64,000 nucleotides of DNA from Nitzschia sp. pyKryTriq1 (Eukaryota; Bacillariophyta; Bacillariophyceae; Bacillariales; Bacillariaceae), in NCBI GenBank assembly GCA_956465555.1, contig OY101126.1, positions 1,468,501 to 1,532,500 of the forward strand. Direction: 5' to 3'. The position numbers and the translations under genes are program-made. The first letter of the stretch is position 1. The number at the start of each line of letters is the position of its first letter. Positions 13,204 through 58,157 of the stretch are shown here, one piece after another. Under the pieces are notes generated by a model, which was given only the letters and a program-made list of their open reading frames with translations, had not been told where the DNA came from and did not search any database.

Positions 13204-15978
13204 TTAGACATCGAACCCCTCCGGCTCAGATTCCTCATCAGAATTATCACCTATTGCGGCAGCGGCTGTTGCATTATTTGATTCTGTATTCTCATTCCCA
13301 ACAGGAGCTGGTGCAGTCACAGCATTGTGCTGAGCGTGATAGATTCTTTCATCTTCGGCAGCTATCAACTCACGAACACGCCTCGAGACTTCTGGGGGTG
13401 GGCGGTCCAGAACTTCTGGCCTCTCCCAGGCATACACATAGTTAAAGCTGGGATACACCCGCTCCGCAAAAAAAGACTTGATGGGCATCAAAATGAACTC
13501 GACGGTGGGAATGGAAAATGAATTCCCAAGCAATCGTTTGGAGTACTCTTCCTGGGAATAGAAAGTCGGCTGACGAAGAAGAAAAACGAAAATGTTGTGA
13601 GTCAGTAGTAGTCTCTCTAACAAAAAGTATAGTAGCCGAAAATACCAACACCACATACCGTCTTGGTGGCCAAGGGTGGAGCCAGCTTGGGCTGTATCGA
13701 TGGAAGGAGATCAAATCGGAAGGGACGACAATTCCCCTCCAATCCATGATAGTCTCCCGCAAACTCCTCATAAGATGCAGGCAAATGGTCCTTCCAGTGA
13801 TTGGTCGGAACCACGCCAGGGATTCGTTTTTTATCCTTTTCTAGTCCATTCCGCAAAATGTTTGAAAATAGATCGGCAACTTGATGTTGGATTCCAAGCA
13901 ACGACGATTGGGAGTGAGAAAATTGACGAAAACGATGAGGAAGACGACCGACCAATGCCAATATGGTCAACAACTTACCGGGAATTCCCACGTAACCCTC
14001 TTCAAATCCCATCAACCGCTCTCTTTCGACCGCAGTAGGAGCCCTTCGCTCAAAAAAGAGAGGGATCACTCCAAGAGGGCCCCTCTCCTCTGGACACTCC
14101 TTAAAAATGGACATGCGGGGGTGGTCGTCCAGCCGGGACTTTGTCGCCATCAATCCATTCGCCCGTGCGGTAATGGATGGCTCAAAGATGCCCCCACCAA
14201 CATCAAAGTCATCATCAAAGCAAGTCCTGGGGGGATACTCCTTGCCCAGATCCAAACCTCCAATGGTAGGTATGTTTGTGATGTACGTGCGATTTCGTCG
14301 CAAGGGCGAAATGTCCTTGGAGTCCAGCTCAAAACTCCAAGGGCTAGCAAGGACTTCCAAGACGTCAGCAAGGTTTTTGATCTCTTCTTCCTCTTCCTCA
14401 TCGTGGCTATCTTCATCATCCATGGGTATAGCTACAGGTGGGAAAGCCTTCATGACACGACTGAGATCCCCTTCCCCTAGCGGCAATTCTGCTTCATTGG
14501 ACAAGACAGCATTTTCTGCCAAGTAAAAGCAGAGCTGTTCATGATTTCGGCTGTATTCGCAGATGTCTCGTATGACTTTGCCCATACGAATAAAGTATGA
14601 GCCTTGCTCTCCACTAGCACCTTGACGGTGGGCATTGACTCCGGTGTAATCGACACAAGGAGGGCCTCCGCAAACAATATCAAAGGCTTTCTTGGTAGCA
14701 GACGCGGCAAGGCAAGGCAAGGCGAGGCAAGGCAAGGCGAGGCGAGGCGAGGCGAGGCAAGGCAAGGCAAGGCAAGGCAAGGCAAGGCAAGGCAAGGCAA
14801 GGCAAGAGAAGAGAAACGTGTGAGAAGCAGCCTTCATTCCAATTCAGGGGGAAAAACCACTTACGCCCATGCTGTTGAAGCAAATGCTCCAGCTGGTCTT
14901 CGAACTCTTCAAATTTTACGATATGAATGTGGTGGATACCATCATTCGTGTTGTTATGCCAGTATTTGTAGACTTGGTTGGCTACTTTGTCGTGTTCGAC
15001 ATGAATTATTGTCTTGATTGAAACTTGGAGTCGTTTCAAGCAGACAATGGCCGCACCAATGCCGCCAAACAAATCTACCACAACGGCGGATCGTTTCATC
15101 ATCGGCTGATTGTCCAATTTCTTGTCGACTGTTGGTTCTCCTTCCTGATGATGATGATGATGATGATTATCGTAGGCCAGATTAGAATGGAGAACATATT
15201 TGTTGAATTTTCGTTCCGCTGCCTGGTAGGCCCGATTGGAACGAAGAACATCGGCAAAATCTAATATACGAGAATAATATATAATACGTACCCACCAAAA
15301 CGACATTTTGGTGAGAGACAGTACAAATCCAAGCCAAAAGTCACCATTCCAACAACCAACACAACACAACACAACACAACACAACCAGCAACACTTACAA
15401 GGGATTTCGTCCTCGTTGTACAGCTGGGCCTCTTGACTTTTGTTGAGGCTGTACCTCGAGTAGACCTCCACCCCGTCGACTTTTTCGTTTGGTTCCGCCG
15501 CATCAAAGATAATATCGTATCCCTCCTTGATCAAAAGCTTTTCAAGTTTGGCTTGAGCTCGGTCAAACTCTGGCAGCCAGTCGTAATCGGGATCATAGGC
15601 TCTGTGGCAGCAGCGGCGATGCCAGAGACATTCTTCGGATTGCTGAATATATTCGTCGCCTTGAAAATCCTTTTTGATCTCTTCGGGACAGTTGCAGATC
15701 TTGCAACAAAATGCAATGTCCGCTTCGATCTGCTCGTCAGTCTCATTGCTGACCTGTCCCATGTTCATGGAATTTCGAATCGCAGAGCCGTCCACGTGGA
15801 TTTGCTGCTGCTTTGCCTTGAGGCGTTTTTGCCGCCCCCTGCGCTGCCTTTCTTCCGCGTGTCGCCGCTGAGCCTGCTCGTCGTCGGAGCTGTCCTCATT
15901 ATTTGCTGCTGCAACGCCAGCAGCTTCTTCCGTCAAGAAGACCCTCTCGCGTTTGCTAGCACGGGGCTGGGTGCGCAT
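13204..15978 (-). CDS. DNMT3: DNMT3-like C5 cytosine DNA methyltransferase
   Basis: Four exons: 15978-15399, 15260-14865, 14686-13659 and 13569-13204, giving 789 residues. All introns are GT-AG and phases agree. Motif I reads VVDLFGGIGAAIVCLKRL. The catalytic motif IV reads GPFDIVCGGPPCVDYTGVN, created across the exon 2/3 junction; its GPFD preface and VN tail resemble DNMT3, not DNMT1. The C-terminal exon carries NSFSIPTVEFILMPIKSFFA, matching the target-recognition end of DNMT3 (RSWSVPVIRHLFAPLK in animals). The first 190 residues are charged and contain a Cys/His cluster (CCKICNC, later CLWHRRCCH) that may bind zinc. No PWWP or classic ADD domain is seen. It should methylate cytosine in nuclear DNA. 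Its promoter is shared with the J-like gene that starts at 16464. Confidence 0.85.
14706..14805. repeat. Pentanucleotide tandem array in DNMT3 intron 2
   Basis: About twenty tandem copies of GGCAA with GGCGA variants. The array fills over half of the 178-nt intron (14864-14687) and ends roughly 20 nt before the acceptor. Confidence 0.95.
15361..15385. repeat. ACAAC pentamer repeat in DNMT3 intron 1
   Basis: Five tandem copies of ACAAC inside the 138-nt first intron of the methyltransferase gene. They lie close to the donor and read as GTTGT on the transcribed strand. Confidence 0.9.
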
Positions 15979-16463
15979 GTTTGTTGTTGTTTATGTTGTT
16001 TATGTTGTCGTTGTTGTTTATGTTGTCGTTGTTGTTTATGTTGTTGCTGTTGTTGCTGTACGAGGACCGAGAATGTGTGAAGAATGAAGAATCGTATGCG
16101 GCATTCCATGCATGCAGACGAATATGTATGTCGTTCCGCATGCATATCATCACTCACTCATCTTTTGCGCTGCGCGGATCTTGCGGATGGATCTTGCTTT
16201 TACTGTACTCGGATTGTGGCTTGCTTGCGGACGCGCGATATTATTACGGTACGAATGTTGCGATCACCGGCCCCGCCGTGTATGACACTCGTGTGTATGC
16301 GTTTTACAGTGTCCTCATAGTACGGTATACCAGGTACTGTATTATAATACTGCTGATCTGCACCTCTATTATTACAAATAATCATTACTCGCGTACATAC
16401 ATTTGTAGAAAAAGAAAATACAAAAGCAAAAGCAAAAGCAAAAGCGAAAGCGAGAAATTGAAA
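15979..16463. other. Shared promoter region of DNMT3-like and J-like genes
   Basis: Divergent intergenic region. Next to the methyltransferase start is a tract of repeated TTGTTGTTTATG units (15981-16050). An AAAAGC hexamer run (16422-16448) precedes the ATG at 16464. No gene was recognised. Confidence 0.6.
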
Positions 16464-28175: not shown

Positions 28176-31100
28176 ATGGCGCCGACAGCTCAAACTACTG
28201 GCAAGGGAAAGCCCAGTGTAGCCGGCTTTCTGTCGCGTTTGCTTCGTCCCAAAAGTTCCGATATTCTACCACGGGACCCTCCATCCGAGCAGCAGCGGCA
28301 GCAGCAGGCGCAAGTGCAAGTGCAGTTCCGTCCGTACAACGACACGGAAAGCAGCAGCAGTAGCGACATTGTGGCTTTTGACAGCAGCGACGATGAGCAA
28401 GTCCAGATCGTCTCACAGAAAGCCAAGAAGCGGCTCATTGGCAGGGTGAAGACTACAGCAAGTACGATTACGAGTTCGAGTACAAGAAAGAACACTCCTA
28501 TACCGACATCGATACCGACACCCACAGCTACCAGTTCAAGCTCAAGTACGAAGCCAAAGAAGCGACTGGCGCATTTCATGCTCGTTGCTGTCCCCAAGGT
28601 GGCGGCGGCTGCAGCCAAGAGAAACCCCAACTTTGACCATGATTCCGACAGCAGTAGTAGTAGTGATATGGATGTGGATGTGGAGTCCCACGCCAAGAAG
28701 GGGCCGTTGAATTCCAACTCAAAGTTTGACGATGCAGACAGCGACTACGACAGCGATGATACGTTTGATGCAAAAGCGAAAGCTACCAAGGATTGTCTGG
28801 ACCATCACCATTTGAATTTCTCTCAACAGACCGTGCCGACGTCGAACGCCAAGATTCGTACTAGCACTACCACGACTAGAACTAGAACTGAAAAAGCGCA
28901 GTCACCAGAGGATGCTATTGTTGTTGACGATGATGACTATGAGTATGAAAATGAGAATGTCAATGATTCCCCCCAAAGCAAACTAGCAGCAGCACCAGCA
29001 GAAGTGTCGGGTGACGCCGCCTCTCCCGGTCTCCCGACGATCTACTTTTTCAAGAAGCACTGCTGGAAATGCCATGTCACGCTAGACCTAACGATCAACG
29101 GCAATCCCGCACTTTGTCTCTACGCACTTCACCCACATCCACTTCTCAAAGTACCCATTTGCTCGGTCTGCCGAGAGGAGGTCTGGGCGGCAGAACAAGA
29201 GCTACTAGGGAGAGAAGAAGCAGCAGCAAACTCGGAGGAGGAGGAGGAGGAAGAACAAGCTTGCAGTGGTTGTGGAGGCTTGGAGGGGGAGGAAAATGGT
29301 GATACCGGAACTTGTATCGAGACACTTTTTCTCTGCGACGAGTGCCCTAGAGCATTTTGCCAACAATGCGTGGCCCAGTGTCATGGCGGTGGAAGTCGGG
29401 GAGCCAAGCAAGCCAAAGATCTACAGGCAAGCGACGACAAGTGGTCCTGTCCCTTTTGCCTACCACCAAAGCCACTTTCGACACTGCAAACATACATGCA
29501 GAAACGCGCCGAGAGAGAAGGAGTATCCAAGGAGCTAGACCGCACCGTGGAGACCATCCTTTCGGAACTGCAGAAGGTCGAGCAAGAGCGAAGAGAATGC
29601 GACCATCAACTATCCCCAGCAATATTGCGACAGAAGGAAGCCGAAGTTCGCTCGGAAATGTTGTCGATGTCAAATATCATGAAAGATGTTGACATCGCTG
29701 TCCAGGAAGAACTGGAAGCCTGGCAAAAATCATGGGCCAGGCATGATCAACGCCTGGGAGATCGCGTGTTGTCGCTACAAGAAGAAATTGACTCGAGGGG
29801 AGAAAGCTTGGCGGCCGTCTATGCAGCGATTCAGCAAGGCAATGACACGGATCAAGATCAAAGCGACAGCGAACCTGAGTGGAAGAAAGCTGCCGATGCG
29901 GAGATTCAAAGGCGACACGATGACGAGGATGAGGCGGACGATTTGACATTGCAAAATCCATCGGATCCCGCTGTTTACCAGACGAGCATCCCGGAGGATG
30001 TCGAAGATTTAGGTATTTCCGATCCTGGGGAGAATGTAAACAAGCGGTCCAAGTGGCGCCATGGTCGCCGCCGCGCCAATCTCGAAGCTTTCAAGGCAGC
30101 TCTCGAAGAAGAGGACAAGATGTTACATGATCTAGGTATTCCGTTGTCGACGGTAGACGACGACGCGGTTGATCTGGACGACGGCTACGAAGAATTAATC
30201 GTTCGACGGAGACCTCTTTCGGCACTTGGGCCTCGTGGGCCTCGTTCGGAGCCGCCAACGAAGCGACCGCGAATGTTGTCCTCGTCTATTGGTAACACTC
30301 GGGCTCCTCGATCTGCCGGAAAGAATGAAAATGATGATGCTGCTCGTGGCGAAATGTCTGATCTCAGCGACAATGCTTCGCTCGTCACGCCGTCAATGGA
30401 CGATGGAGATTTTGAAAACTCTTCTTTTGTGCTGAGTCCACCTGATTCTGACCGAATCGTGTCGATAGCCGAGCCCTTGGCCACGAAACTCAAGACTCAT
30501 CAAATTGAAGGTGTAGAATTCATGTGGAAGAACTGCTTCGGCGACCTTGCCTATACTGATCCATCTACCGACGTCGTCGCAAACGTCGGTGGTTGTATTT
30601 TGGCGCATGTAAGTACATTACCAGTCGGATCGTGCCTCATCGTCCCTTGCTCGTTGTCGTTCTCTGACGTCCTTCCATTTATCATTCGATTCCAGAATAT
30701 GGGTCTAGGGAAAAGTCTGACATGTATCTCACTGCTACATGCTTTGTTGAGCAAACGTCTCATAAAGACGGTGCTGCTCGTGACGCCCACAAACGTGCTT
30801 GCCCATTGGCAAAACGAGATCGACCAATGGACTGGCAATCTACATTCACCTATCAATATGGTCAATATTGGGGCCATGCAACTATCGGCACGTCGGCAAG
30901 AGATACATCGGTGGAAACAAAGGGGCGGTGTGTTGTTGGTGAGCAACTCCATGTTTGTAGTACTTGTGAAGAACGCAGAATATGCGAACTCTCTGAACGA
31001 CGCCGATGTCGTGGTTGTCGATGAAGGTCATGTAAGTTCTCGACGCGATTTATGTGCCTTTGTTTCACAGTTCCGATATTTCATACTGCACTTCTTACGC

Positions 31101-41147: not shown

Positions 41148-41179
<32 letters not shown>

Positions 41180-42518: not shown

Positions 42519-44641
42519 ATGGCAGCCCCAATCAAGGTCGATGAACTCCTCGTTTCCTTCTGGCTGGGTTCCGACGAAGTGTACGAGAATGTCCTCAATT
42601 TGATTGAAAAGTACCGCATGCAGCGGCAACAGCAACAAGAGCAAGAACTACAGCAACTACAACTACAACAGCAAGCGCAGCAACAACACCACGAACAGCA
42701 AGCGCAGACCAAGGGACCGAGTTCTCTCAAGAATGTTGGCGGCGGTGTCGGAGAGGACGTCAATGACAATGAGAATGACAATGACAACAATTCCGAACGA
42801 TCGCCACGGGGTGTGATGAATATGGTGATTCCACCCTTTTATCCTTTGCAAACGGCGACGGGGACCAAGATTCAGCGACGACGTCAGCTGCCAAGGCAGT
42901 TTGAAACGTGGGATCGTCTTCCGGACAACGCTGCTGCTGATGCTGCTACTGCTACTGCCGCAGTACAAGTACCGCCTTTGCCCAAGAAACAGCAACCACC
43001 GCCGTCCAAGAAAAAGACTTCGTCCCAACAGTTGTTGTCATCCGACGACGACTTGCCCGACGATGAGCAACAAGAAGATCAGCAAGCTGCGGCGGCTGCG
43101 GCGCTCTGCGTTAAAGATCAAGTCCAGAACCTGATACCCGAACTAGTAGAGCTGACGACGATGGAGCCGACGGCGGCTGGAGATGATGTGATCATCTTTT
43201 CACTCGAGTCCTTTGTTCGCATCACCAAGGAGATTTGTAACTTTCCTTCCTTTTTCAATGGCCCTCTCTACCAACGCATTTTGGATCTCTGGAATGTCGC
43301 TCACAAAAATCAAACACAGGCAACAGCAGCAGCAGGAGCAGCAGCCGTTTCGCTGCCCATGTTGGAATGGTTTTGGAAGACGGAAATGGAACCCTATGAT
43401 CCACCCGAACGATTCTTTCGTCTCGTCAAACAACCTCACAATGATTGTATCCTCAGAGATGACTTTTTGCCTTATATCAAAGCGTTGCTCAATGATCACC
43501 CGGTAAGTAAACGAGTACCGTATCAGTTCCGTCCATCGCAGGTGCCAGGTGCCAGGTGCCAAAACAGTCAGTCTTGGATAGCAGCAGCAAGCAGTGAAGT
43601 GGCGACCAACTGTCACCTCATGCCCCCCGCAACTCTCACCTCATTGTTTTATTATCTCACTGTCATCTTCAAAAACAGGGACTCGAGTTCTTGTCCAATC
43701 ACGCCGAGTTTCAAGAAAAGTACGCCGTCACGGTCATTACTAGGATCTTTTATTCCGTCAACAAGTGCCATTCGGGACGCATCACGTCCCGTCAGGTCCG
43801 TCGCAGCGACTTGCTCAGTGCCTTTGCCGCGGTCGATGAAGAAGAAGATATCAACAAGGTTACTCGATACTTTTCCTACGAACACTTTTATGTCTTGTAT
43901 TGTCGATTCTGGGAACTCGACCATGATCGAGATTATCGCATCACACGAGAAGACCTGCTCAAATATGGAGATCATTCTCTTTCTCATATGATTGTTGATC
44001 GGATCTTTGATGCGGCACCCCGTCCCTTCTTTTGTCAAGACAAGAACAACAGTAAGGTCGATCGAGAATTTTTATCCTATGAAGATTTCATCTACTTTAT
44101 GCTATCTGAAGAAGACAAGGCCAATGATGTTTCTGTCCGTTATTGGTTTGCCTGCGTCGATGTCGATGGCGATGCCAAATTGAACAATATGGAAATGAGA
44201 TCCTTTTATGCTGTCCAATTGCATCGAATGCAATGCATGGGACATGAAATTGTCCCGTTTGAAGATATGCTCTGTCAAATGATGGATATGATCAAACCCG
44301 CCTCAAATGATCATTTGATCGTGGAAGATTTTCTACAACCCGAATGCAGTAATGTTTCGGGTGCACTATTCGATGCGCTCTTTAATTTGAACAAGTATCT
44401 CATGTTTGAACAACGTGATCCGTTCGTCGAACGACAAAAACGAGAAGATGAATTTGAAACGGATTGGGATCGATTTGCCTGTATTGATTATAATCGCTTG
44501 GCCATGGAAGAAGAAGCCCGAGAAGAAGAAAATGAATTGAATATGGAAATCGATTGGGTGAATGTCGATGAAGATGAAGAAGAACAGCAGCAACAACAAC
44601 AATTCTCGGGAGGACCGGTCACTACTGAATCGCCATTCTAG
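42519..44641 (+). CDS. Protein phosphatase 2A regulatory subunit B'' (PR72/PPP2R3-like)
   Basis: Two exons, 42519-43502 and 43679-44641, give 648 residues; the phase-0 intron runs GTAAGT to AACAG. The N-terminal 200 residues are Gln/Asp-rich and not conserved. The core includes RITSRQVRRSDLLSAF, EHFYVLYCRFWELDHD, and EF-hand loops DHDRDYRITRED and DVDGDAKLNNME. These are the calcium-binding pair typical of B'' subunits. A motif of the form SYEDFIYFMLSEEDK also fits. B'' subunits choose substrates for PP2A in a calcium-dependent way. The C terminus is acidic and Gln-rich. Confidence 0.88.
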
Positions 44642-45408
44642 TAGGCTAGTAGTAAAGGTGTCGATGATGTTTACTCGATCGAGTCGAATGTTTCCTCTCT
44701 ACTGATCGGTCAAGGTAGTAAGGACTTGTGGATGGAAAACACTCGAATTTGAGGAAAAATCGAGCTCCAGCAATTTCTATAAAACTAGTTGAAAAAGTTG
44801 ACGCCAGCACTGAAGTTTCGATACGTCGAAGAATTAGTGAATTCGGACCACTCCAAGGTGCCGAAATTGGCTTTCATAGCCCTCTCCAAAGTCGGTTCCC
44901 CATATTGGGACTACGGACGACGGCCAGCCGGCGTTGACTCCGTGTTATGGGGAAGAAAAAAGAAGACACGTCCGAACGTCGTACGTATTATTTTGACGAA
45001 AAGACACCTTTTAACGCGCGTGCAACAGCGCCCGCAACAATGCGAAAATCTGCCGCCGACAGACCAAGCGACAATACGACGAGAGCGAGAGGCCGACTGC
45101 CTGCGCTACCATACTATTGCTGGTACCAGTACGAATACGAACTGTACGGTACGAATCATCGTACTTGCTCCTACAGTACTGGTACGAGTAGCACAGCATG
45201 GACACATCATAAAACAAATGGCAGCACAACTTTTGATACTACTTACTTTGAAACTTGTTTCCTGCAATTGAAAGCCACGCTCCACAAACAACAAACAACA
45301 GAAAAAACAAACGACGAGTGAGTTCTTATCGCAGTTCTCCTGGTACAATTAGATCTACCGTACAGTAGTACAGTACGAGAAACGTACAGAGCGTTCGTAC
45401 ACAACAGT
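44642..45408. other. Intergenic region upstream of DGAT2
   Basis: No credible gene. Several open frames overlap in different phases without family resemblance. GTAC-rich sequence (TGGTACCAGTACGAATACG) lies at 45120-45190 and 45355-45400, just before the DGAT2 start. Confidence 0.45.
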
Positions 45409-46638
45409 ATGACGACCACGTCGCCACCTCAATCTCAATCCCAAAGTTCGTCGTCGTTCTACAAGCTCAACTTGGGCACTTTGCCCGATGATTTGTATTT
45501 CGATGACGTCCCCGTGGAAAAGTGGTTGGCCTTGGCCGAGCAGTCGCCATCTGTCGATGGTGCTGCGGCTGCGGCTGGATGTGTTGGATTTCCGCCCAAC
45601 TCCCTGAACCAGCTGGTGCCGCTCGAACCCATGGTCGAGATCGAACGAATCATTGGCATTTCCATGTACATGCTCGGAAACGTGCTTCCGTTTGCCCTGC
45701 CTCCTCTCATCGTGGGCGCATTTTACTCGGTGGTGGCTCGGTATGCGCTGTTTGCGCTCTTGTTCTATGCCGGATCTTTCATGACGGTCCATGCCGTATT
45801 CTTTCAGCCTTACTTTTTGAAACGGTACAAGCGCACTGCCAACATGAACCACAACAACGTCCGAGACAACCAATATCTGTACACGGAACGCAATTCCTGC
45901 AAGTATTTGAACACGACTGTCGTGTGGCCGTCTTCACTGCACGAGGGAGGAAAGTACAAGGACAAGCCAGTCATTTTCTGCATGGTCCCCCACGGCGTTG
46001 CTCCCTTTGGAGCGACGGCGTACCCTATGTGGAGCAAATTGTGGTCGTCGAAACTCTGTCATTGGACGTGCGCTCCGATCATTTTGCAATTGCCATTTAT
46101 CGGTTATTTTATGAATCAGATTGGCTACATTCCCGCCAAATCACAGCCGATCATAGAGACCTTGACGGGCACAGAGAAACAAGAATCGGTCGGCGTCTTT
46201 TTGGATGGCATTCACGGCATGTTTCAACCCCAGAATGGAATTGCTGGTAAAGAAGAAACTGCCTATTTAAAACAACGCAAGGGAATTGTCAAGATCGCTT
46301 TACGGGCGGGGGTGCCTATTATTCCCGTCTATGGATTCGGACACACGGCCATGTATACAGTACTCGTGGATCCGTTTGGCATTTTGGAATGGCTCAGTAT
46401 TCAATTGCAAGCTTCGCTGACTCCTTTTTATGGACGATGGGGGTGGTTCTTGGGACCACCCCGGCGTATTCCCGTCACTTTGTGTTTGGGAGAACCGATC
46501 GAATGTCCCCTCATTGCCGAACCCACCAAGGACGACGTCAATCGATATCACGCCGAAATGGTAGCAGGCTTTCAACAAGTCTTTCAACAACACAAGCATG
46601 CGTATGGCTGGGGAGACAAGACTTTGAAAGTTGTGTAA
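45409..46638 (+). CDS. DGAT2: Type 2 diacylglycerol acyltransferase (DGAT2/MOGAT family)
   Basis: Single exon of 409 residues. Hydrophobic helices lie at about 85-130 (MYMLGNVLPFALPPLIVGAF, then ALFALLFYAGSFMTVHAVFF). The acyltransferase core has MVPHGVAPFGA near 192, equivalent to the HPHG active-site motif although the first His is Val. It continues with LPFIGYFMNQIGYIPA, GVFLDGIHGMFQP, KQRKGIVKIALRAGVPIIPV and YGFGHTAMY. DGAT2 acylates diacylglycerol with acyl-CoA at the ER to make triacylglycerol. Diatoms have several DGAT2 paralogues. The V-P-H-G form could shift acyl or acceptor preference, so monoacylglycerol or wax synthesis cannot be excluded. Confidence 0.85.
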   Translation: MTTTSPPQSQSQSSSSFYKLNLGTLPDDLYFDDVPVEKWLALAEQSPSVDGAAAAAGCVGFPPNSLNQLVPLEPMVEIERIIGISMYMLGNVLPFALPPLIVGAFYSVVARYALFALLFYAGSFMTVHAVFFQPYFLKRYKRTANMNHNNVRDNQYLYTERNSCKYLNTTVVWPSSLHEGGKYKDKPVIFCMVPHGVAPFGATAYPMWSKLWSSKLCHWTCAPIILQLPFIGYFMNQIGYIPAKSQPIIETLTGTEKQESVGVFLDGIHGMFQPQNGIAGKEETAYLKQRKGIVKIALRAGVPIIPVYGFGHTAMYTVLVDPFGILEWLSIQLQASLTPFYGRWGWFLGPPRRIPVTLCLGEPIECPLIAEPTKDDVNRYHAEMVAGFQQVFQQHKHAYGWGDKTLKVV

Positions 46639-46771
46639 TAATATTGAATTATAGTAACGTCTGTATGAATAGAATGTAGTTCCCTTATTCTTGCAAGCTA
46701 CACGTTGTAGCTAGCTTCCGATAGTCATTCTTGCAGTGCGGAACGTATTCAGTAGTACGTGCTCGTCAGTG

Positions 46772-49700
46772 TCAGCGTATTCGTTGTCGACGCACAGAGC
46801 TCTGCCTCCCGCCTGTGCGGATCGATCCAAAAACCTGCGAGTAATATGCAACACATGTAGGATATAAAATTCGGATAACCCAACAAACAACAAAAGGTTG
46901 ACGCAAAAGGCTCATCCGGTGATGTGAGGGCGGAAGGGGGCTCGCTGTGCGAAACAGAAACACCAACCGACAAGGCACCGGTGAGTTCACACCGTCCCAT
47001 GCAATGTTCTCGACAAACTCAACCATTATACCGGTACTTACCCATCCCTTCCTGGAAGAAGTGCTACTCAAGGTGCAGCGACTGTCGTAGACTCCGTAGC
47101 CTTCGAACAATCGACCAGCTAGATACTGCCCGACCTCATCGCGACGAATCAAATGAGAGTCATTCTCATCGTCAGCGATGAGTGGGCAGGTTACCTGGGC
47201 AAGTACCAGATAGCCACCATAACTGGAAAGGCGTTGAAAGGAGAATGTTAGACCACTTGAATAGGACTAGCTAGAGTAGAAACGGAACGGCAGACGGAAT
47301 GGCAGACCGACTCTTCATCGTTGGCAGGAGTGTAGACGTCTAGAGAATACGTACCTAATTGCCCGGTTCGCCAACTTCTCGCTATTAAGAAGTACTGGAA
47401 TCTTTCGGGGGCTCTTTGTTGCCGATCCATCTGATGAAAATGTTGGAGAATAGGTACTGGTGAGAAATTGCAGGGTGATGGGAAGAAACGGCCAGAAATA
47501 TTGACTTACATTGGTACGACAAGTCGTACGTCAAGTCGTACAAAGACGAATTATTCAGTCCGGTGATGCCGTGATTGCCAAATCTCGGGGGTGGCGATGC
47601 ATTTTCGTTTAAAATGCAACGATAAAACATCGGCTTAGACGTGCCCTTGAGTCCACCCTGGGCCGTCAAGAGGAAAGAAAAGCTACCGTCATTGACATCG
47701 AGTAGCCTGAAGTCATCCACTAGATCTCTTACCAAAGTCCCACTTGGGACATTGTTGTCTCTTCCCATCTTGGTCGCTGTGGTGTAGAGATATCGGTATG
47801 ACAGATGTGAGAGCAAATTTGTCAGTGAGTGATACGATTCCGCTCTCTAGGAGTCACTTACTTGGCACAATATTCATATTGTGATCCTGAAAATAATCAA
47901 CGAATAAAGCGTGAGTCTGGCGAATTCAAAAAGAATCAAAGAAACGAAACCAGCAGGACTTGCCTTGTTTGAAACTATGAAGGTTAGCGGAGGGGCACAC
48001 ATCGGGCAATTTCGGTCCTCGCAATTCTGGGGGCACTCTCGGCCGCACTCCATGTTCATTTCAGCAAAAGCTTCCTTCACAGCTTTGACCTCTTCATTTT
48101 TAATGTTATCGAATGACCCCGTTGAGCCACCATCACGGAAAATAATTATCCGCTCTGGGACTGCATCCGCGTGGGCGAAGAAGTTCATCGCCAAATCCTT
48201 CACGAGCTCTTTGAGCACCCCGCTGTCGACCACATCTGATTTTTTTCCAGACTTCTGAAATTTCACACTCTGACCCATTTGCATTGGATGGTGTAGGCAA
48301 ACGGAGCCAGCAACAGCGGTCGTAGCCTCTGAATTGATCCGCCCATGACCGAGGCTGTAGCCTATGATGATAAGACAAAGCAACACGGCAATTAGCGAAC
48401 ATCGTCCCAAAAGACGTTAGCCTCTATTGACGAAAGCATACATCATACATGGAACTCACCGAAGATCATCGTGGGAATTTGAGTGACCCATTTCAGGGAG
48501 TCTTTCAATATCCACGCACAAGCTTCGTTTGCTTTGTTAAAAAGCTTGGTATTCACCTTCAGTGCGATGTTCGAACAGCTAGAAAGTACGTATTGGATTG
48601 GGTGAGAAAAATCAACGCGACTGTCAAAAAAACAAAATTGGCACTCACTACTGTTGTGTGGTCTTCTGCCTTTCAGCAGTCGCCCGGACAATGCACTGCG
48701 TATTGGTTGCCGCGTGAAGATCACAGACAGCCTTTACGCAGTTGTATAAAGCTGTTTCTACCTCGGGGAGGAAACAGAAGATCATGGAAGGGCATTCGAT
48801 TTGCCAGTCTTCAAGCTTGTGGTAAAATGTATACCCCGACACCTCGCTATGAGGAATGATCTGGTTCCAGCCATCTACTTTGAATCCTTTCGCTCCTAGA
48901 TCGATTGGTACTGCAGCAAATTTTAGATCGTGGAAAACAAGGTTCGCAAAGTCAACAAATGAAACTTACCGTCCCCTGGGACTTCAGAGGGATCAAGCCA
49001 CCTGCCGTCTAAAGTTCGGAATTGAAGTCTTGCAAAGGCTTTTTTTGTCGGGTCCTTTGCATTTGTTATTTCATGCGATGGCTCGGGAAAAGGAGGGATT
49101 CGATACCAATTTCCGTCGTCTTGAACAAGCCAGGCATTTTCGATCTGGCCGTCTGGACCAACGGCTGTGCCGTTGAACACAGTCCCTGATTCAAGGAAAA
49201 CTTTTTTTGCCCTTGCTTTTGCTTCTTTGAAGCTGAGATAAACAGAATCGGGACTACTGTGCCGATTCTGTATGATTAAGTTGTGCAAATGCGATCGACC
49301 TTGGTTCAATATTTTCATGCCGTGGCCCTCCATCGACTGGAAGAGGTCCCGCATGATCCGATCTGCAGTGATCCGACCAGATCCCCCGCAAAAGTCTATC
49401 ACCGCATAGGCTGGTAAATCGGCAGAACTAACGCAAGTGAAATGATGGTGTTAGTTGGATTTGCCGGTGATGTATTCGATCCCCACCAAGTTGAACTCAC
49501 CTATAAAATTTTTTATTCTTCAGGTTCCAGGAGCCTTTTGGCACCCCATCAAGGGTTTCATTCTTGAATTCAAGAGAAGGAGGAGGGAGTTGGACAGCTG
49601 GAGCATCTACCGGTTCTTCCTCAACATGAAGATGGAAATTTTCGAAGGTTCTCAACAAGCTATCCTCGCCACCCTCTCGGTACGCCATATTCTTAATGTC

Positions 49701-51632
49701 CCGCACGTGATGGATACGAGCTATTCCGGCATTGGCATCATGATATGCCAATACCTTCATCACCTTATCCGGTGCGTTTCCTCCAACACGAGAACGCTCC
49801 TGGAAGAGGAACTCAATCGGAAAATAGCCCGCTGCTCCAACGCAGATAATTGGCATGTTTGGAAATTCGACAGTGACATCGTAGATGTCCTTATAATAGG
49901 AGGCAACGTTGTATTCCTTGACCTCATCCCCCATCTTTTTTGGAAAGGTGTGCTCGTAACAAGACCACATGATTCGAGGTTCACTTGGTAGTGCTGCTAC
50001 CTCCTCCTTGGGGCCTCTTGGGGTACGGTATCTCATTTCTTGTCTAATCTTAGTACATATGCGGTACTCTTCAGTGTACCCAACTCGCTTTCCTTCCGCT
50101 CTGCGGCCTAGTAGATGTGAAATGGCAAGTGATAAAAAAGTTAGCTCACAATAGAATGACCTTGGGGGCTGCGAGAGGGATACGTACCTTGAACCCATGC
50201 TTCGCCCTTTTTGTAGACGACCTTAAAAGTCATTTTTGCGATTGCTTCTTCAATATTTTTTTTCAAAACTGGGTCGCTGATCTTGTTGTTGAGATCCCGG
50301 ATTGGGATCCCAACGATAGTTCTGTTGAACTTATCCAGGAGGGGGATGTCAGTGGAAAGATCGCCAGGTAGGCCTTGGCGATAAAACCAGTCGACTTTGT
50401 TGTTGATGGCCAACATAAACTTGCCATTGTTCCCAAATCGAGCTGACTGAGAAAGCCCAACGTATGGCGCAAAGGATCCTGGGCGTTCCTATGAATAATA
50501 GAAAAGGTGTCAGGATTATTCGGATCTTTCGAAAACCAAAGTGACAAGACGATATGCTTACGTAGTACGAGCCTAGTGGATTTCTTCCACTCTGTCTCAT
50601 GAGTTCGATTTGCCTCTGTTCTGGCAAAAAGAACGCCTCTGGATTCTTTCCTACGGCAAGGCAGCTGACGGTCAAGCCATGTTTGATAAGTATCTCAAGG
50701 CACTGCTTGATTTTGTCGCTCGTGGCTAGCTCGACTGGGGATGTCGGCTTGGAGAAAAAGATCCCCAGCGGGACGGCATCCGTATGGTGTAGTGTGACTT
50801 TGTAGCTTTGGTGTCGAGAACTCAATACTACAAACACTTCTTTGCTGCTAGTTTCCTCAAAGTTCCAAATTGGAACGGGAGAAATCCCAGTCTGTACGGA
50901 ATCAGTCTGGGCGAGACGGAAGATCGTAAGATCGTGAGAAACATATCTGAATCACCCAAGTAAACGCCCGAGCCCCGAGGCCTTTACGTACCGCTAGTAA
51001 AATGTTATATAAGTCCTTGATTTTGTTCGACAAGCGCAACAAAATCTCCCTTGAGTGTTCTGTGGACCCTGTTTCAATCATTTTCTTCTGAAAGCGCTCG
51101 ATCTTGGCTGGGTGGGCGTCCGGAACTGCTTCCAACGGCTGGTCCCGATCCTTGTCTTGTCTTCCCTTTTTGGGAGTAATGACAATCTGGTACTTGTACC
51201 AGACTGCATTGGGATCTTTTCCCAGGTAATTGACATTGAAAAGATTAGTCAAGACACGGAAGTCTTGGGGTACCCTAGGAACTGGGGGGCCTCGTCCACC
51301 ACCGCCGCCGCCACCGCCACTGCCGCCACCGTATCCACCGTATCCTCCGCGACCGCCTCCTCCATGATTAGGCCGCCCTCCTCCTCCACCTCCGCCTCCG
51401 TATCCTAAAATAAAAGAATAACAATGATACAAGTACCAGTATCAGCACCAGTACAGTGATTTAGAAATCGTTCATGTCAAGACTTGCCGCCATGCGAATG
51501 CGAATGAATTGGAACGAAGTCAGACATACCGCCACCTCCGCGCCCTCCGCCTCCTCCGCCACGGCCGCCGTAACCTCCGCCTCCAGGAGGTGGATATGGA
51601 GCATATCCTCTACCTCCGCCTGAATAGCTCAT
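46772..51632 (-). CDS. AGO: Argonaute, 14 exons, catalytic residues incomplete
   Basis: Exons: 51632-51530, 51404-50992, 50891-50562, 50488-50188, 50107-49501, 49427-48970, 48910-48649, 48578-48460, 48361-47964, 47886-47862, 47776-47510, 47430-47355, 47222-47042 and 46834-46772. This gives 1200 residues with all phases agreeing. A Gly/Arg/Tyr-rich N terminus (first 65 residues) precedes the Argonaute N domain. PAZ covers about 340-480 (VTVEFPNMPIICVGAAGYFP). MID has TNTQCIVRATAERQ and QQYCSNIALKVNTKL. PIWI has RIIIFRDGGSTGSF, LTFIVSNKDHNMNIVP and NVPSGTLVRDL. The first catalytic Asp (GADVTH in active proteins) reads GGYSLGH, and the final His/Asp position reads SEKL. RDG keeps its Asp. Slicing is therefore doubtful. 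The last exon is uncertain: another splice choice would end at 46711 with TARMTIGS. Lies directly downstream of the Dicer-like gene. Confidence 0.9.
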
Positions 51633-52016: not shown

Positions 52017-55000
52017 TTAAGTTGTGGTTTTTCGCAGGCAGTTGGTGTTCCCTGTGCTGTAGTTTGCACATACTGTCGAAACATCACTGAAATGGAGCCG
52101 ATACTCTTCCGGAGTGAGAATCATGACCTCCTCCATTAGTGGGCGAATGGCATTGTTCCATGTAGTCTCGGACCCAACAGACAAGACTAGACCACCAACG
52201 ATACATTTGAACGAGAACTGCCAATCGTCTACAGTAGTCATGTTCAATTTTTTGTCGTTTCCGTAGAGTCGTCCCCCAGCCACTCCAGGGTATGTGGGTC
52301 CAGCACACTCTTCGCAGGCTAAAACTGGGTTCAAAGAAAGTAGCTGCTGTCTGCGGGCGTGAAAGGTTGCTGAGCCACCAGGCAATATCCAGCCTGCATT
52401 ACTTTCCCAATGCTTATGCCCAATGGCGTCAGCCGCGAGCACTATCTGCATTACTCGACCTCGTCCCGGGGGATTATCGTCGAACAGACACTCATGAAGG
52501 CCCCGTTTCAACAATATGTACACCAGAACGTCGTGGGTGAGTGCACATGCAAGAAGAAGATGCAAGTCGCTAGGCGTAGCGCTTGGGTTCAAGGCAAATA
52601 GATCCCTGCTCATATGAAGCTCAAGTGCGGTAGAACCAACGTGGAACAAATTGTCGCGTATCATACCGATGACGCCGAGTCTCTCTAGTATATCCTGCGA
52701 GTCGGGCAAAGCTTTGTCAGATCCGTCCAGATTGGCATCGAACAAAGCAATTGACAACAAAAGACTTCCTGTTTCCTCCACTTTAGGCAAATTGCTTAGT
52801 ATTGATAGCAGTTGCCGGGATTTGATCCCCAGTGTTTCTTTTATCGTAGGTAGGAGGACGTCAAATACAGTGTTGGCTTCGTGCAAACGCTCTTGCCACT
52901 CTGGATGGAGCCCAAAGTCGTACCCCTTTCCCAAGCAGAGACTGCAATGGCGGAACCACGACCCCCCACATCTTGGCGCTGTGTTTTGGTCAGTAGGTAT
53001 AGGGGGCTTGAGTCCCTCCAAAATTCCCACTACAATCTGGCCAACACCAACATCTCTGATCTCATCTTGCTCGTGAAGGTAGGCAGCTCCCAGAATACTT
53101 TCGACAATATTGCACAAGAAAGTGTCAGGAATTGCAAAAGAAGCCCAATCTTTCTTCCAAGGAATGATGCCTGCATGGATCAATCGGTCTAGCCCCGCAC
53201 GAAGAGCACAATCAACAAGAGCGACATTTTTCTTGGCCACCGTGCCATGGTCCTTGAGCTCGTCGTGTCCCCATTGAAGCTGGCAATTTCTAGCAAATAG
53301 GTTCAATGAAATCGCGTGATTGAGAACCCGATCACCAAGAAACTCCAACCGTTCGAAACGGCTTGTCGGGAAAACAGTCGTTGCTTCCGAAAGAAGATCC
53401 GTAAATGTATCGGTCGTGGTGACTTCTTGCCCAACACCCCGAAGATCGCCCACCAAAACTAAGTCTCTCGAGAACACGCTGGAGCCCAGAGCTGACGCTG
53501 CTTGTTTCAACTGCTGAGCTTTGGAATAATTTGTAATGACTGTCTCCAGGGATAACATGTAACTTTCCGCTGCTCCCACAGCAAATAAAAAATCTCGGGG
53601 CATCGGATCAAGACCACTGTCTCTTGATTCGCATGTCTTGTCTCCTTGGGGGTTAGACCGTGCAGTGGTCTTAAATTGAACCACTCTTTCAATGAGATCC
53701 CAATCAATTTTATTTTCATGCTGCAAGGAAGAGGTTTCCACCAGCGGGACAAAGGTGTAGTGCCGCCTTTTGTCTCCTTTCGATTTCAAGGCCTCCAGGG
53801 GGCAATTCGTGCCATAAAGTTTCCAGTGTGTGGTAATAGTGAAGAAATCCTCCAGTTTTGAGGCCACATTGTCATTGTCATTGTCATTGCCATTGTCGAG
53901 CGTGATAAGGTGGGGCTTACACAGCTTGACTGTATAGTCTGTCTCGCCATTTCCGAGCCGAAAGGAAGCTTGGAACTCCCGTGGATGATTATCTTTATCT
54001 CGGCCTCGGAGCTCCTCACAGTCCGGTAATAGTAGCCCAAGACTGCCGGTAGTGACAAACGGTACATCGACTTTATATAGTATGGCCTTTCCGTTGCTCC
54101 TAATGTTGCTAATTTTGGACGCATTCCAACAAGCCCAATGCGGCAATTCGAAGGCGCAGTGAAGATACGGAGGATCGCTCGCAAGCAGTTCCATCTTTTC
54201 TTCGAGCTCACAAAAAATGTTGGGAGTCTTGTCCTTGTCCTTGTCACTGTCACTGTCACTGTCCTTGTCCTTGTCACTGTCACTGTCACTGTCACTGTCC
54301 TTTTCCTTTTCCTTTTCCGTCTCCTGAAGCCTAGAGGCTAACTTCGAAATTGCCTTGTTCCGTGCCTCTGATTTGGTTGGCATCGGGTCGCTCTGGACTT
54401 TGATGGTAGCAGGAGTTCTGATCTCAATTTCGCAGACGACCAGGGTAGGAGATAGCATAGTATGACTGAGACTGCCAGCAAAATCTGGACTCTTTTGTGT
54501 GCGATAAACAATGTGGAGTTTTCGAATACCCAATCGATAAACCTCATGGATCCATGGTATTTTGTCGAGTTTCTTAATTTTCTTTTCGATGTTCATCTGT
54601 GGTGCTGTTGCTGCTGTTGCTGATGTTGTTACTGTGTTTGTTGTCTGGGATTCTCGAAAAAACGCGTCCTTCTTCCTTTTGCTCTTTGTCATTATTAATT
54701 GGTCTTCAGGGATTCCCTGGGGGCCAAAGCGTTTCCACAGAAAGCAGAAGGCGGCACTTCGTTTGGCATTCTTCTTGGTCCCGAAGTAGACGACGTCGTT
54801 GTTGACAACAAAATCGCCGAACCATTGCTGAGACAGTCTCGCCAAGTTCCGCAGATTACTCGTCTCGGAATCGATATTATCGGTATCGGTATCGGTCCTC
54901 CGCAACAAGGGAGAGGCTACGACGCTGGTGCCACTGGCCGACTGGTCGAGAGGACATTGGAAGGTGCAGCTCCAGTAGGTTTTCGTTTCCTTTTTGCGGC

Positions 55001-55289
55001 CGATACGATACCACTGAGGGGGCAGCCAGCAATTCGACATTCCCTCCAAATACTTTCGTTGCTGGTAGTAGTGCTGTAGCGTCATCAGCGGGTCGCCCCG
55101 TTTCGTGTAGAGTTCCAAGAGCCGGATAGCCTCGTCGACAGACTGAGATAGAGATTGAGACTGAGACTGAGACTGAGACTGAGAATCACTGAGTTGAGAT
55201 TCAGATGTCGGGTCTTTCTCACCATCTCCTGCTTCTAGTAGCGGTGTTAGCGACAGTGATGCGCGGGACACAAACAATTGCGGTTGCAT
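52017..55289 (-). CDS. DCL: Dicer-like RNase III (no helicase), second RNase III domain degenerate
   Basis: Single exon of 1090 residues. The N-terminal 60 residues are Ser/Gln repeats. Residues about 60-330 are of unknown fold. A Ser/Asp/Lys repeat follows at about 325-358, then a platform/PAZ-like region ending with HYTFVPLVETSS and KIDWDLIERVV (near 510-535), as in Dicers. RNase IIIa (about 610-770) has SRFERLEFLGDRVLNHAI with the catalytic Glu/Asp pair and IVESILGAAYL with the distal Glu. A second RNase III-like region (about 850-1050) has HVGSTALELHMSRDLF, where the catalytic Asp of FLGD is Ser. Its distal helix reads KCIVGGLVLSVG, lacking the Glu. Dicers cut dsRNA into small RNAs. With one live centre it may cut one strand per domain or act as a dimer. 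Argonaute follows 385 bp downstream on the same strand. Confidence 0.85.
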   Translation of the reverse strand: MQPQLFVSRASLSLTPLLEAGDGEKDPTSESQLSDSQSQSQSQSQSLSQSVDEAIRLLELYTKRGDPLMTLQHYYQQRKYLEGMSNCWLPPQWYRIGRKKETKTYWSCTFQCPLDQSASGTSVVASPLLRRTDTDTDNIDSETSNLRNLARLSQQWFGDFVVNNDVVYFGTKKNAKRSAAFCFLWKRFGPQGIPEDQLIMTKSKRKKDAFFRESQTTNTVTTSATAATAPQMNIEKKIKKLDKIPWIHEVYRLGIRKLHIVYRTQKSPDFAGSLSHTMLSPTLVVCEIEIRTPATIKVQSDPMPTKSEARNKAISKLASRLQETEKEKEKDSDSDSDSDKDKDSDSDSDKDKDKTPNIFCELEEKMELLASDPPYLHCAFELPHWACWNASKISNIRSNGKAILYKVDVPFVTTGSLGLLLPDCEELRGRDKDNHPREFQASFRLGNGETDYTVKLCKPHLITLDNGNDNDNDNVASKLEDFFTITTHWKLYGTNCPLEALKSKGDKRRHYTFVPLVETSSLQHENKIDWDLIERVVQFKTTARSNPQGDKTCESRDSGLDPMPRDFLFAVGAAESYMLSLETVITNYSKAQQLKQAASALGSSVFSRDLVLVGDLRGVGQEVTTTDTFTDLLSEATTVFPTSRFERLEFLGDRVLNHAISLNLFARNCQLQWGHDELKDHGTVAKKNVALVDCALRAGLDRLIHAGIIPWKKDWASFAIPDTFLCNIVESILGAAYLHEQDEIRDVGVGQIVVGILEGLKPPIPTDQNTAPRCGGSWFRHCSLCLGKGYDFGLHPEWQERLHEANTVFDVLLPTIKETLGIKSRQLLSILSNLPKVEETGSLLLSIALFDANLDGSDKALPDSQDILERLGVIGMIRDNLFHVGSTALELHMSRDLFALNPSATPSDLHLLLACALTHDVLVYILLKRGLHECLFDDNPPGRGRVMQIVLAADAIGHKHWESNAGWILPGGSATFHARRQQLLSLNPVLACEECAGPTYPGVAGGRLYGNDKKLNMTTVDDWQFSFKCIVGGLVLSVGSETTWNNAIRPLMEEVMILTPEEYRLHFSDVSTVCANYSTGNTNCLRKTTT
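54217..54320. repeat. Hexamer/18-bp repeats coding Ser-Asp/Lys-Asp run
   Basis: Repeated CTGTCA and CTTGTC hexamers inside the Dicer-like coding frame, encoding alternating SDSDSD and KDKD on the minus strand. In frame, so length can vary without breaking the gene. Confidence 0.9.
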
Positions 55290-55891: not shown

Positions 55892-55941
55892 TTATTACGC
55901 CCAATTCAGTAGTAGTGCCTCCAACGCACACGCATCCTCTA

Positions 55942-56712: not shown

Positions 56713-57113
56713 GTATTGGCATATTTCCCGCATGCTGTTGAATGTGATGTGGCGGACAGACGGCAGTAAAGATCTTCGATCTCATGTCGCGAAAGATTTT
56801 TCTTCGCAGGCATACACGTGCGTACAGTACTCATACGTACCGGTACGTTCCGTACACGCGTCCCGCGTATCTTCTTTTCGTGCTTCGTGCTTATACTGCT
56901 CAGTGCTTATAGTATTATGCTTTGTGCACATTCACATTTTAATTTGCACTTCGTATTAACGTTGCGGCAGCCAACGCAAAAAAGCACCTGCACAGTGCAC
57001 AGACAGTACCGGTACCGGTACCGGTACCGGTGCCGGTACACATATCGGTAGCGTCAAATCATATTCAAGCTCGGCATCACACAGTCATTACGAATAATAC
57101 CATCAGTACGAAT
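56713..57113. other. Intergenic region upstream of dsRBD-like gene
   Basis: Contains a strong palindromic run of GTACCGGTACCGGTACCGGT type at 57005-57045 and GTAC-rich sequence at 56820-56865, just before the ATG at 57114. No gene was recognised. Confidence 0.6.
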
Positions 57114-58157
57114 ATGGAAGCATCGTCATCGATCGGACCTCATCATCAGCCTCCTCGCTCTGGTTTTGATGGGTGGAAAGCAGCGTTATGGAAGCATCGA
57201 ATGCCACCCGGCTACCAGCCGCCGCCCTCCGCAACAACAACAGCACCCGACCCCGAAGGCCGCTTCATTCCAGGGCACTTGTGGGGTGACTCGACCCTTA
57301 CGGAAACTTCTCCCCCTGTGGCCACCAGTACAGTGGGTTCTCCTACTCCCACTATGGAAACGGATCCAGTGCCAAGTCCACAGGAGGACGACACCAAAAC
57401 TGATGATGCTTCGCCTTCCGATGGTGCCCGAGACGAAGAAATGAGTGCGGAAATACTCGGGGATGAACCAACCGAAAACCGATTCTTCCTCGGGGCACCA
57501 TTCATCCCTACAACAACCCAAGGGTCTCCAAAAATGGCACTCAATGCCCTGTACGGGAAAGAAATGGAAGTGGACATCAGGGAAGATTCTTATTTTTATT
57601 GGAACCATAGAGGTCAATTTACATGCGTTGTGGTATGCCCAGTCACCTACGAAATATTTCCTGCTGGTCGGTACCAGTCAATGGCGCTCACAGCTTCGGG
57701 GGGAGACATTGGGATGACGGTCGATGACACAGGAATTGTGTGGTATTCTAGAAAAAAGGAAGCCGCCCAAGGAGCAGCGGCCTGTCGCTACGATTGTTGG
57801 TACTATCGCCAATGGTTGCTAAGCAATCCGTCAGCACCCAAAATTCGGCTCTTTGGGCTCGATGACCCCTATGGTAGTCCTGAAGATGATCGTCCCAGCA
57901 AAACTCTAGCTCTTATCCCTCCAGAGATCATGGAATCGATCCAAGCCAGAATTGTGGCTTGGAAAAAAGCAGCTCAAGAACGGAAACACGCCAAAGAACA
58001 GGAGGTCGTGGTGGAAGTAGAATCGGACGCCTATCGAAATGCATACCTAGAGACTCGAGGTGGAGGGGGACAGAATACGAATACCGGTACCGGTACGGGT
58101 AGTGACGAGGCAATGGATGACGACTCTCCGCAGATGCCAGGAGCAAATATACTTTAG
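57114..58157 (+). CDS. Unknown protein with dsRNA-binding-like segment
   Basis: The ATG at 57114 is chosen because the longer frame starts with GTG. The protein has 347 residues in a single exon. The first 160 residues are Pro/Thr/Asp-rich and disordered. Residues about 163-230 contain SYFYWNHRGQFTCVVVCPVT, then GIVWYSRKKEAAQGAAACRY. The beta-rich start followed by K-K-x-A-x3-AA in a final helix resembles a degenerate dsRBD, although no close family is recognised. An Arg/Lys/Glu helix and an acidic end follow. The neighbouring Dicer-like and Argonaute genes make an RNAi accessory role (as for R2D2 or HYL1-type partners) attractive but unproven. It converges with DHFR-TS. Confidence 0.5.
   Translation: MEASSSIGPHHQPPRSGFDGWKAALWKHRMPPGYQPPPSATTTAPDPEGRFIPGHLWGDSTLTETSPPVATSTVGSPTPTMETDPVPSPQEDDTKTDDASPSDGARDEEMSAEILGDEPTENRFFLGAPFIPTTTQGSPKMALNALYGKEMEVDIREDSYFYWNHRGQFTCVVVCPVTYEIFPAGRYQSMALTASGGDIGMTVDDTGIVWYSRKKEAAQGAAACRYDCWYYRQWLLSNPSAPKIRLFGLDDPYGSPEDDRPSKTLALIPPEIMESIQARIVAWKKAAQERKHAKEQEVVVEVESDAYRNAYLETRGGGGQNTNTGTGTGSDEAMDDDSPQMPGANIL

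What the first reader, a model, noticed from the sequence alone, without database searches (positions are those of the whole stretch)
13204..58157. Cluster of RNAi, chromatin-reader and DNA-methylation genes within 45 kb
The sequence shows a DNMT3-like methyltransferase, an ATRX-like ADD-SNF2-CW protein, a chromodomain-RdRP fusion, an Argonaute, a Dicer-like RNase III and a dsRBD-like protein in one neighbourhood. These families belong to RNA-directed heterochromatin or DNA methylation in plants and fungi, where their genes are normally dispersed. The co-location, with Dicer and Argonaute in tandem, suggests a selected or co-regulated silencing locus. Unrelated genes lie between members, so this is not an operon, and the functional link is inference.
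Basis: partly seen in the sequence, partly recalled or inferred. Interest (0 to 1): 0.93.

Follow-up and report, generated by a model that had tools for sequence, protein, structure and literature searches.

The report
Diatom RNA-silencing gene cluster
In a genome that looks like a diatom's, an Argonaute gene, a Dicer-like gene and a gene for an RNA-copying enzyme that carries a chromatin-reading domain lie close together, and the unusual make-up of the three proteins suggests a separate, chromatin-directed form of RNA silencing.

Summary
The cluster is real. Spliced gene models confirm five of the six proposed members: a DNMT3-type methyltransferase, an ATRX-like SNF2-CW protein, a chromodomain-RdRP fusion, an Argonaute and a Dicer-like RNase III. 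The "dsRBD" protein stays unproven. The core is RdRP-AGO-Dicer-like in 16.9 kb; random placement of the families' genome-wide copies gives this in 371 of 40,000,000 trials. The methyltransferase and the SNF2-CW gene add about 1% each and may be bystanders. No gap lies in 264 kb.

The members are not ordinary RNAi genes. The AGO has lost slicer residues, as have all six homologues aligned. The Dicer-like protein has an Asp-to-Asn change in RNase IIIa and no catalytic residue left in RNase IIIb (7 of 7 rows). The RdRP keeps DLDGD; a few relatives carry chromodomains or a methyl-CpG-binding domain. A tandem RNase III enzyme with all catalytic residues and an AGO keeping two catalytic Asp lie on another contig.

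Best reading: a slicer-independent, chromatin-coupled RdRP module for heterochromatin, using Dicer cuts made elsewhere. Co-regulation is not shown: no shared promoter words, no expression data; gene order in other diatoms could not be checked. New variant of a known kind.

The parts
38399..41834 (-). Chromodomain-RdRP fusion, 1115 aa, 2 exons (39406-41834, 38399-39317); DLDGD catalytic motif at 38819-38851
   Evidence: Pfam RdRP 2.6e-18 and Chromo 1.9e-5; splice model; motif places; the nearest homologue P0001 (59% over 55% of the region) stops at the same place, SPM, where the window gene has its intron
40374..40484 (-). Chromodomain of the RdRP protein, aa 451-487, aromatic cage positions W452/W471/Y474 (cage positions recalled from HP1)
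   Evidence: PDB: Chromobox 5 (HP1 alpha) 1.1e-6; place
40923..41039 (-). Possible second, degenerate chromodomain-like stretch, aa 266-304
   Evidence: Sequence pattern only; no significant PDB match; a similar stretch is visible in P0001, but Pfam finds one stretch there
46912..51632 (-). Argonaute, 1176 aa, 14 exons, RGG-rich N-terminus; slicer position D1 is Ser (FGYSLGHG), the fourth catalytic position (His/Asp) aligns with Glu, second Asp kept (FRDGG)
   Evidence: PAZ and Piwi, human AGO2 alignment, clade alignment, places
52017..55289 (-). Dicer-like protein, 1090 aa, single exon: two dsRBD-like stretches, no PAZ found, RNase IIIa (aa 646-740) with D-to-N at N727, pseudo-RNase IIIb (about aa 870-1040)
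   Evidence: Pfam Ribonuclease_3 1e-12; alignment of 7 (residues); dsRBD-like helices by eye
13204..15978 (-). DNMT3-type cytosine-5 DNA methyltransferase, 789 aa, 4 exons (15399-15978, 14865-15260, 13659-14686, 13204-13569); motifs in the order I, IV, VI, VIII, IX, X
   Evidence: Pfam DNA_methylase 1.7e-7; PDB DRM2 1.6e-14, DNMT3A 1.4e-10; motif places (motif labels recalled). Membership in the cluster weakly supported
28176..33093 (+). ATRX-like SNF2 protein with N-terminal ADD-like zinc region and C-terminal CW finger, 1521 aa, 5 exons (28176-30608, 30696-31031, 31122-32132, 32220-32518, 32607-33093)
   Evidence: SNF2 5.8e-44, zf-CW 1.5e-15; ATRX ADD 0.0052; last splice correction. Membership in the cluster weakly supported
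57114..58157 (+).
   Evidence: No Pfam or PDB relative; low-confidence model
42519..46638 (+). Unrelated gene between RdRP and AGO: EF-hands plus diacylglycerol acyltransferase (possibly two genes merged by the gene finder)
   Evidence: EF-hand_13 4.6e-17, DAGAT 3.6e-24

Best explanation
The core (chromodomain-RdRP, AGO, Dicer-like; 38399-55289) is a linked gene set for a chromatin-coupled, slicer-independent RNA-silencing branch. Proposed order of events. (1) The chromodomain holds the RdRP on histone-methylated chromatin (inferred from the domain). (2) The RdRP, whose DLDGD motif is intact, copies nascent transcripts there into dsRNA (inferred). (3) The dsRNA is bound by the Dicer-like protein, which can at most nick one strand because its RNase IIIb is dead; true dicing is done by the tandem RNase III enzyme with intact residues encoded on contig C2 (loss and presence of residues shown, division of labour inferred). 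(4) Small RNAs guide the AGO, which lacks slicer residues, back to nascent RNA, where it recruits modifiers instead of cutting (loss of residues shown, recruitment inferred). (5) The DNMT3-type methyltransferase and ATRX-like remodeller nearby may act in the same heterochromatin, but their linkage is weak evidence. Likely target: transposons and other repeats (inferred).
For: Linkage of the three core families: 371 of 40,000,000 random placements. Chromodomain on the RdRP. Readers fused to RdRPs in some relatives: by precomputed Pfam, 3 of 41 hits carry a chromodomain (P0001, P0006, P0016) and 1 of 41 an MBD (P0002); confirmed in a Pfam scan of 10 of the 41, where P0003 also shows an MBD under cut-off. 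The window RdRP and P0001 form a 100/100 pair inside a 100/100 clade of 7 that holds chromodomain and MBD members; P0016 falls in another clade (P0001 fills 43% of columns). AGO position D1 is Ser in 6 and Ala in 1 of 7 clade rows; the fourth position is not His or Asp in 6 of 7 (Epithemia has Asp there but has lost the first two Asp); a plant AGO keeps D1, second Asp and His, and the second own AGO keeps the first two Asp. Dicer-like: Asn at 727 in 6 of 7 and RNase IIIb catalytic positions lost in 7 of 7, so the losses are old and kept. The RNase III gene at C2:886 kb has two domains with E, D, D, E each: YEKLEW-FGDAVLK (across an intron) with ADVIESILG, and ERLEWVGDAVL with ADIVESLFG. In Phaeodactylum, Dicer is reported to make 26-31-nt small RNAs mostly from transposons under repressive marks (passage on Grypioti et al. 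2024 in PMC11910954).
Against: No expression, small-RNA or methylation data. No shared upstream 8-mers (a weak test). Gene order in other diatoms could not be looked at; viral and prokaryotic collections gave no relatives. Most of the 41 RdRP hits carry no reader domain in Pfam, the next most common extra being KOW/SPT5 motifs in 7 of 41. An unrelated EF-hand/acyltransferase gene on the other strand lies between RdRP and AGO. The chromodomain's histone preference is unknown. Loss of catalytic residues is read from sequence; both AlphaFold models were too poor to use.
Confidence: 0.5

Rival explanations
1. Chance or historical linkage: the genes lie together by accident of rearrangement and work independently; some, such as the methyltransferase and the SNF2-CW gene, are mere neighbours.
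For: Ten other gene models, one of them marginal, are interspersed. Families were chosen after the fact. Methyltransferase and CW genes would fall within the span by chance about 1.1% and 0.8% of the time each. No shared promoter words.
Against: The RdRP-AGO-Dicer-like triad is expected at about 9e-6 per genome, AGO and Dicer-like are in tandem 384 bp apart, and the AGO and Dicer-like members are the catalytically altered copies.
Confidence: 0.27
2. A general RNAi locus (post-transcriptional or antiviral) without a special chromatin role, the chromodomain being for localisation only.
For: AGO, Dicer-like and RdRP are the usual trio; T. pseudonana and P. tricornutum hold such sets (passages).
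Against: AGO lacks slicer residues and the Dicer-like protein lacks one cleavage centre entirely, which argues against target cleavage; the RdRP carries a chromodomain.
Confidence: 0.13
3. A decaying paralogous RNAi set: AGO and Dicer-like are relics that have lost function.
For: Catalytic residues lost; the Dicer-like copy also lacks about 150-190 aa, with the end of a PAZ-like region, that homologues have.
Against: The reading frames are open over 1090 and 1176 aa; the main losses are shared by the homologues, with 44-52% identity for 5 of 6 Dicer-like rows and 52% for the nearest AGO, so the proteins have probably been kept under selection.
Confidence: 0.1

Closest known systems
Fission yeast RITS (Chp1 chromodomain, Ago1, Tas3) with RDRC (Rdp1) and Dcr1 (recalled)
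   Same: Chromodomain reading of methylated H3 coupled to RdRP, Argonaute and dicing
   Different: Here the chromodomain is fused to the RdRP itself, the AGO lacks slicer residues, the genes are linked, and DNA methyltransferases exist in the genome
Plant RNA-directed DNA methylation (RDR2, DCL3, AGO4, DRM2, CLSY/DRD1) (recalled)
   Same: RdRP, Dicer, AGO, DNMT3/DRM-type methyltransferase and SNF2 protein; DRM2 is the best PDB match of the methyltransferase
Phaeodactylum tricornutum and Thalassiosira pseudonana RNAi set (PMC3145265, PMC3155517, PMC4247016: passages)
   Same: Dicer-like proteins with two RNase III domains (with a dsRBD in P. tricornutum), AGO, RdRPs; no canonical full-length Dicer
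   Different: Their dicing candidates are described as keeping the key residues and the AGO as having canonical domain composition; the window's Dicer-like and AGO have lost catalytic residues
Diatom DNMT3 (PMC9998398: abstract, one section and passages)
   Same: DNMT3-type enzyme in diatoms without recognised chromatin domains
   Different: The window copy has a cysteine-rich N-terminal stretch of unknown nature and lies near RNAi genes
Linked AGO1/DCL1 genes of Chlamydomonas (recalled; paper not held)
   Same: A Dicer and an Argonaute gene as neighbours
   Different: No chromatin-reader RdRP recalled there; not verified here

Membership tests
Eukaryotic Argonaute | PAZ and Piwi domains in order | tested here: met
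   PAZ 1.2e-5 (under Pfam's cut-off) and Piwi 1.9e-15, each on one exon; AGO2 match over both regions
Slicing Argonaute | DEDH/DEDD catalytic tetrad | tested here: not met
   First Asp is Ser and fourth position aligns with Glu; second Asp kept; the Glu finger was not scored
Dicer | Two RNase III domains in tandem | tested here: inconclusive
   One clear domain; the second is recognisable only by eye in the alignment and has no catalytic residues
Dicer | Catalytic acidic residues (E, D, D, E) in each RNase III domain | tested here: not met
   IIIa E649, D653, N727, E730; IIIb none in 7 of 7 rows
Dicer | PAZ domain | tested here: not met
   No Pfam PAZ; the PAZ-end region of homologues is missing from the window copy
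Cellular RdRP | PF05183 domain with DxDGD motif | tested here: met
   2.6e-18; DLDGD
Chromodomain | Sequence match to the fold and aromatic cage | tested here: met
   HP1 alpha 1.1e-6; 30.9 bits, 24.9 against a cut-off of 25.1; cage positions by eye; binding not testable
RITS/RDRC-type system | Chromodomain protein, AGO and RdRP in physical complexes on H3K9me chromatin | not testable with these tools
   Needs interaction and ChIP data
DNMT3 | Catalytic motifs I, IV, VI, VIII, IX, X in this order | tested here: met
   Motif places; DNMT3A 1.4e-10
DRM | Permuted motif order (VI-X before I-IV) | tested here: not met
ATRX | ADD domain plus SNF2 ATPase | tested here: inconclusive
   SNF2 5.8e-44; ADD only 0.0052 to ATRX
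RNA-directed DNA methylation | Small-RNA-guided cytosine methylation | not testable with these tools
   Needs small-RNA and bisulfite data
Co-regulated gene cluster | Shared expression | not testable with these tools
   Only proxy run: no shared upstream 8-mers

The most novel reading that the evidence does not exclude
Diatoms hold a silencing branch in which the RdRP itself is the chromatin reader (chromodomain in some lineages, methyl-CpG-binding domain in others), paired with an Argonaute that never slices and a Dicer-like protein that binds or nicks dsRNA but cannot dice alone. The linked genes travel as a module beside a separate Dicer/AGO pair with intact residues. This would be a read-copy-silence loop built without the RITS adaptor and without plant Pol IV.
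Probability: 0.25. Interest if true: 0.85.

Novelty: new variant of a known kind. Interest (0 to 1): 0.62.

Why it matters
How RdRPs are brought to chromatin is solved by adaptors in fission yeast and by Pol IV in plants (recalled). Direct fusion of methyl-histone or methyl-CpG readers to the RdRP would be a third solution and gives a simple test bed: one protein, separable reader and polymerase. A kept pair of catalytically altered AGO and Dicer-like proteins would show that heterochromatic silencing can run without slicing. If the genes are linked in several diatoms, the locus would be an unusual case of a functional gene cluster for RNA silencing in a eukaryote.

Tried and rejected
DRM-type methyltransferase: best PDB match but motif order is DNMT3's. 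Cluster reaching beyond the window: of 33 flank genes listed within about 60 kb on either side, the largest exon piece of 30 was scanned at E 1e-5; one methyl-CpG-binding protein (8.1e-6, L017) and no other silencing gene; other exons of those genes were not scanned. Shared promoter words: none. dsRBD member: unproven. Synteny in other genomes: three scans of viral contigs and one of prokaryotic genomes found no relatives; contigs behind the protein homologues cannot be opened here. AlphaFold of the Dicer-like protein with 7 sequences: mean pLDDT 44.6, not used. First gene-finder run merged neighbouring genes and was replaced. PDB search of the RdRP core gave nothing at 0.001. Literature: no paper held any of the six chromodomain/MBD-RdRP phrases tried; other searches. 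The paper most to the point (Grypioti et al. 2024) is not held, so absence from print is not shown.
Full report
What is there. The window lies at C12:1468501-1532500 of a 40.65 Mb assembly in 20 contigs. Organism names are hidden; the closest homologues that bear a species name are diatoms: Nitzschia sp. Nitz4 and Attheya for the RdRP, Dactyliosolen fragilissimus and Epithemia clementina for the AGO. Further named hits are dinoflagellates for the RdRP and grasses, with much weaker scores, for the AGO. A diatom is therefore likely, not proven. A gene finder trained on long open frames of 264 kb gave 16 models between 13204 and 55289; two of these are one methyltransferase gene and one is marginal, so 5 of 15 genes belong to silencing families.

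Identity of the members. Pfam and PDB searches on single exons and spliced models support the methyltransferase, SNF2-CW protein, chromodomain-RdRP, Argonaute and Dicer-like protein. The introns of the four spliced genes all begin with GT and end with AG and are 59-178 bp long. One SNF2 acceptor was then corrected, which brings helicase motif AGGIGINL into the model. The 347-aa protein at 57114 is not shown to be a dsRBD protein.

Chance. Six-frame family searches of the whole genome found 2 Piwi, 3 RdRP and 3 RNase III genes, 7 DNA_methylase genes, 5 chromodomain places and about 6 CW genes. Placing 2, 3, 3 and 8 genes (7 plus the window's methyltransferase) at random gave the triad within 17 kb in 371 and the triad plus a methyltransferase within 45 kb in 6 of 40,000,000 trials. 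These numbers ignore that the families were chosen after the fact and that many kinds of cluster could have been noticed.

What the members can do. Argonaute: in an alignment of the window protein with six homologues, a plant AGO and the second own AGO, the first slicer Asp is Ser in six clade members and Ala in Epithemia. The second Asp is kept in six and is Ser in Epithemia. The fourth position is Glu in the window and P0049, Ser or Ala in four, and Asp in Epithemia only. The plant AGO keeps both Asp and the His; the second own AGO keeps the first two Asp, its last exon was not read. The human AGO2 alignment agrees at D1. Dicer-like: in 7 rows E649, D653 and E730 are invariant, position 727 is Asn in 6 and Asp in one distant row, and the second RNase III domain lacks every catalytic acid in all rows. 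The window copy has 25 aa where five homologues have 178-213 aa; the stretch missing holds a hydrophobic segment and the end of a PAZ-like region. A different RNase III gene at C2:886 kb has tandem domains with all four acidic residues in each, the first read across one intron. So the cluster holds the altered copies. RdRP: the DLDGD motif is intact.

Readers on RdRPs. Of 41 RdRP hits, precomputed Pfam shows a chromodomain in three (P0001, P0006, P0016), an MBD in one (P0002) and KOW or SPT5-KOW in seven; most have the RdRP domain alone (only the 8000 candidates sharing most words were scored). P0001 is cut before the catalytic part, so its RdRP identity rests on alignment. A scan of ten chosen hits agreed, with an MBD under cut-off in P0003 and KOW in two, one of them under cut-off. 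In the tree the window protein pairs with P0001 (100/100) inside a 100/100 clade of seven with mixed readers, while P0016 joins KOW-type relatives at 99/96, so the chromodomain fusion has probably arisen or moved more than once. P0001 ends where the window gene has its intron, which suggests a shared intron.

How it may work, and how sure. The simplest reading is a loop: reader-RdRP on silent chromatin, dsRNA made in place, dicing by the intact enzyme, and a non-slicing AGO that recruits modifiers. Shown: genes, domains, residue losses, linkage. Inferred: order of events, localisation, targets. A passage on P. tricornutum Dicer making 26-31-nt RNAs from transposons under repressive marks fits a heterochromatic role for diatom RNAi in general, but concerns another species and perhaps another kind of Dicer.

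Known and new. Published diatom sets (passages in PMC3145265, PMC3155517, PMC4247016) list AGO, Dicer-like proteins and RdRPs, with dicing candidates said to keep key residues; gene linkage was not mentioned in the passages seen. Diatom DNMT3s are known (section of PMC9998398). No paper in the held library matched the chromodomain-RdRP phrases. The main diatom RNAi paper was not available, so novelty of the fusion is provisional.

Verdict. Real, non-random core; outer members that may be bystanders; an unusual biochemical make-up that makes the chromatin reading plausible and testable.

Noticed in passing
P0042-P0047 (homologues of window 52017-55289): Dicer-like homologues (6 of 6) carry a 19-residue hydrophobic segment (mean hydropathy 1.8-2.3) before the PAZ-like end, and 5 of 6 a second, mostly weaker one (1.0-2.0); could be a membrane hairpin in a Dicer-like protein. 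The window copy lacks the stretch.
   Followed up: partly
L025 and L023 (contig C14, about 555-558 kb): A second RdRP of this genome is a long single open frame with three KOW/SPT5-like stretches by eye; 7 of 41 RdRP hits carry KOW-type motifs in Pfam. RdRP fused to a transcription-elongation module.
   Followed up: partly
L017:5988-7055: Protein with a methyl-CpG-binding domain (8.1e-6) about 55 kb beyond the Dicer-like gene.
   Followed up: no
P0005: RdRP with five helicase-associated (HA) domain stretches in front of it.
   Followed up: no
window 14706-14806: 20 copies of GGCAA lie inside an intron of the methyltransferase gene.
   Followed up: no
window 42519-46638: EF-hand and diacylglycerol acyltransferase domains in one gene model; either a fusion or two merged genes.
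   Followed up: no
window 63410-63791: Two copies of a 195-bp tandem repeat, 94% alike.
   Followed up: no
L037 (contig C9, about 1.773 Mb): Methyltransferase within an open frame of 1799 aa, possibly DNMT5-like (label recalled).
   Followed up: no
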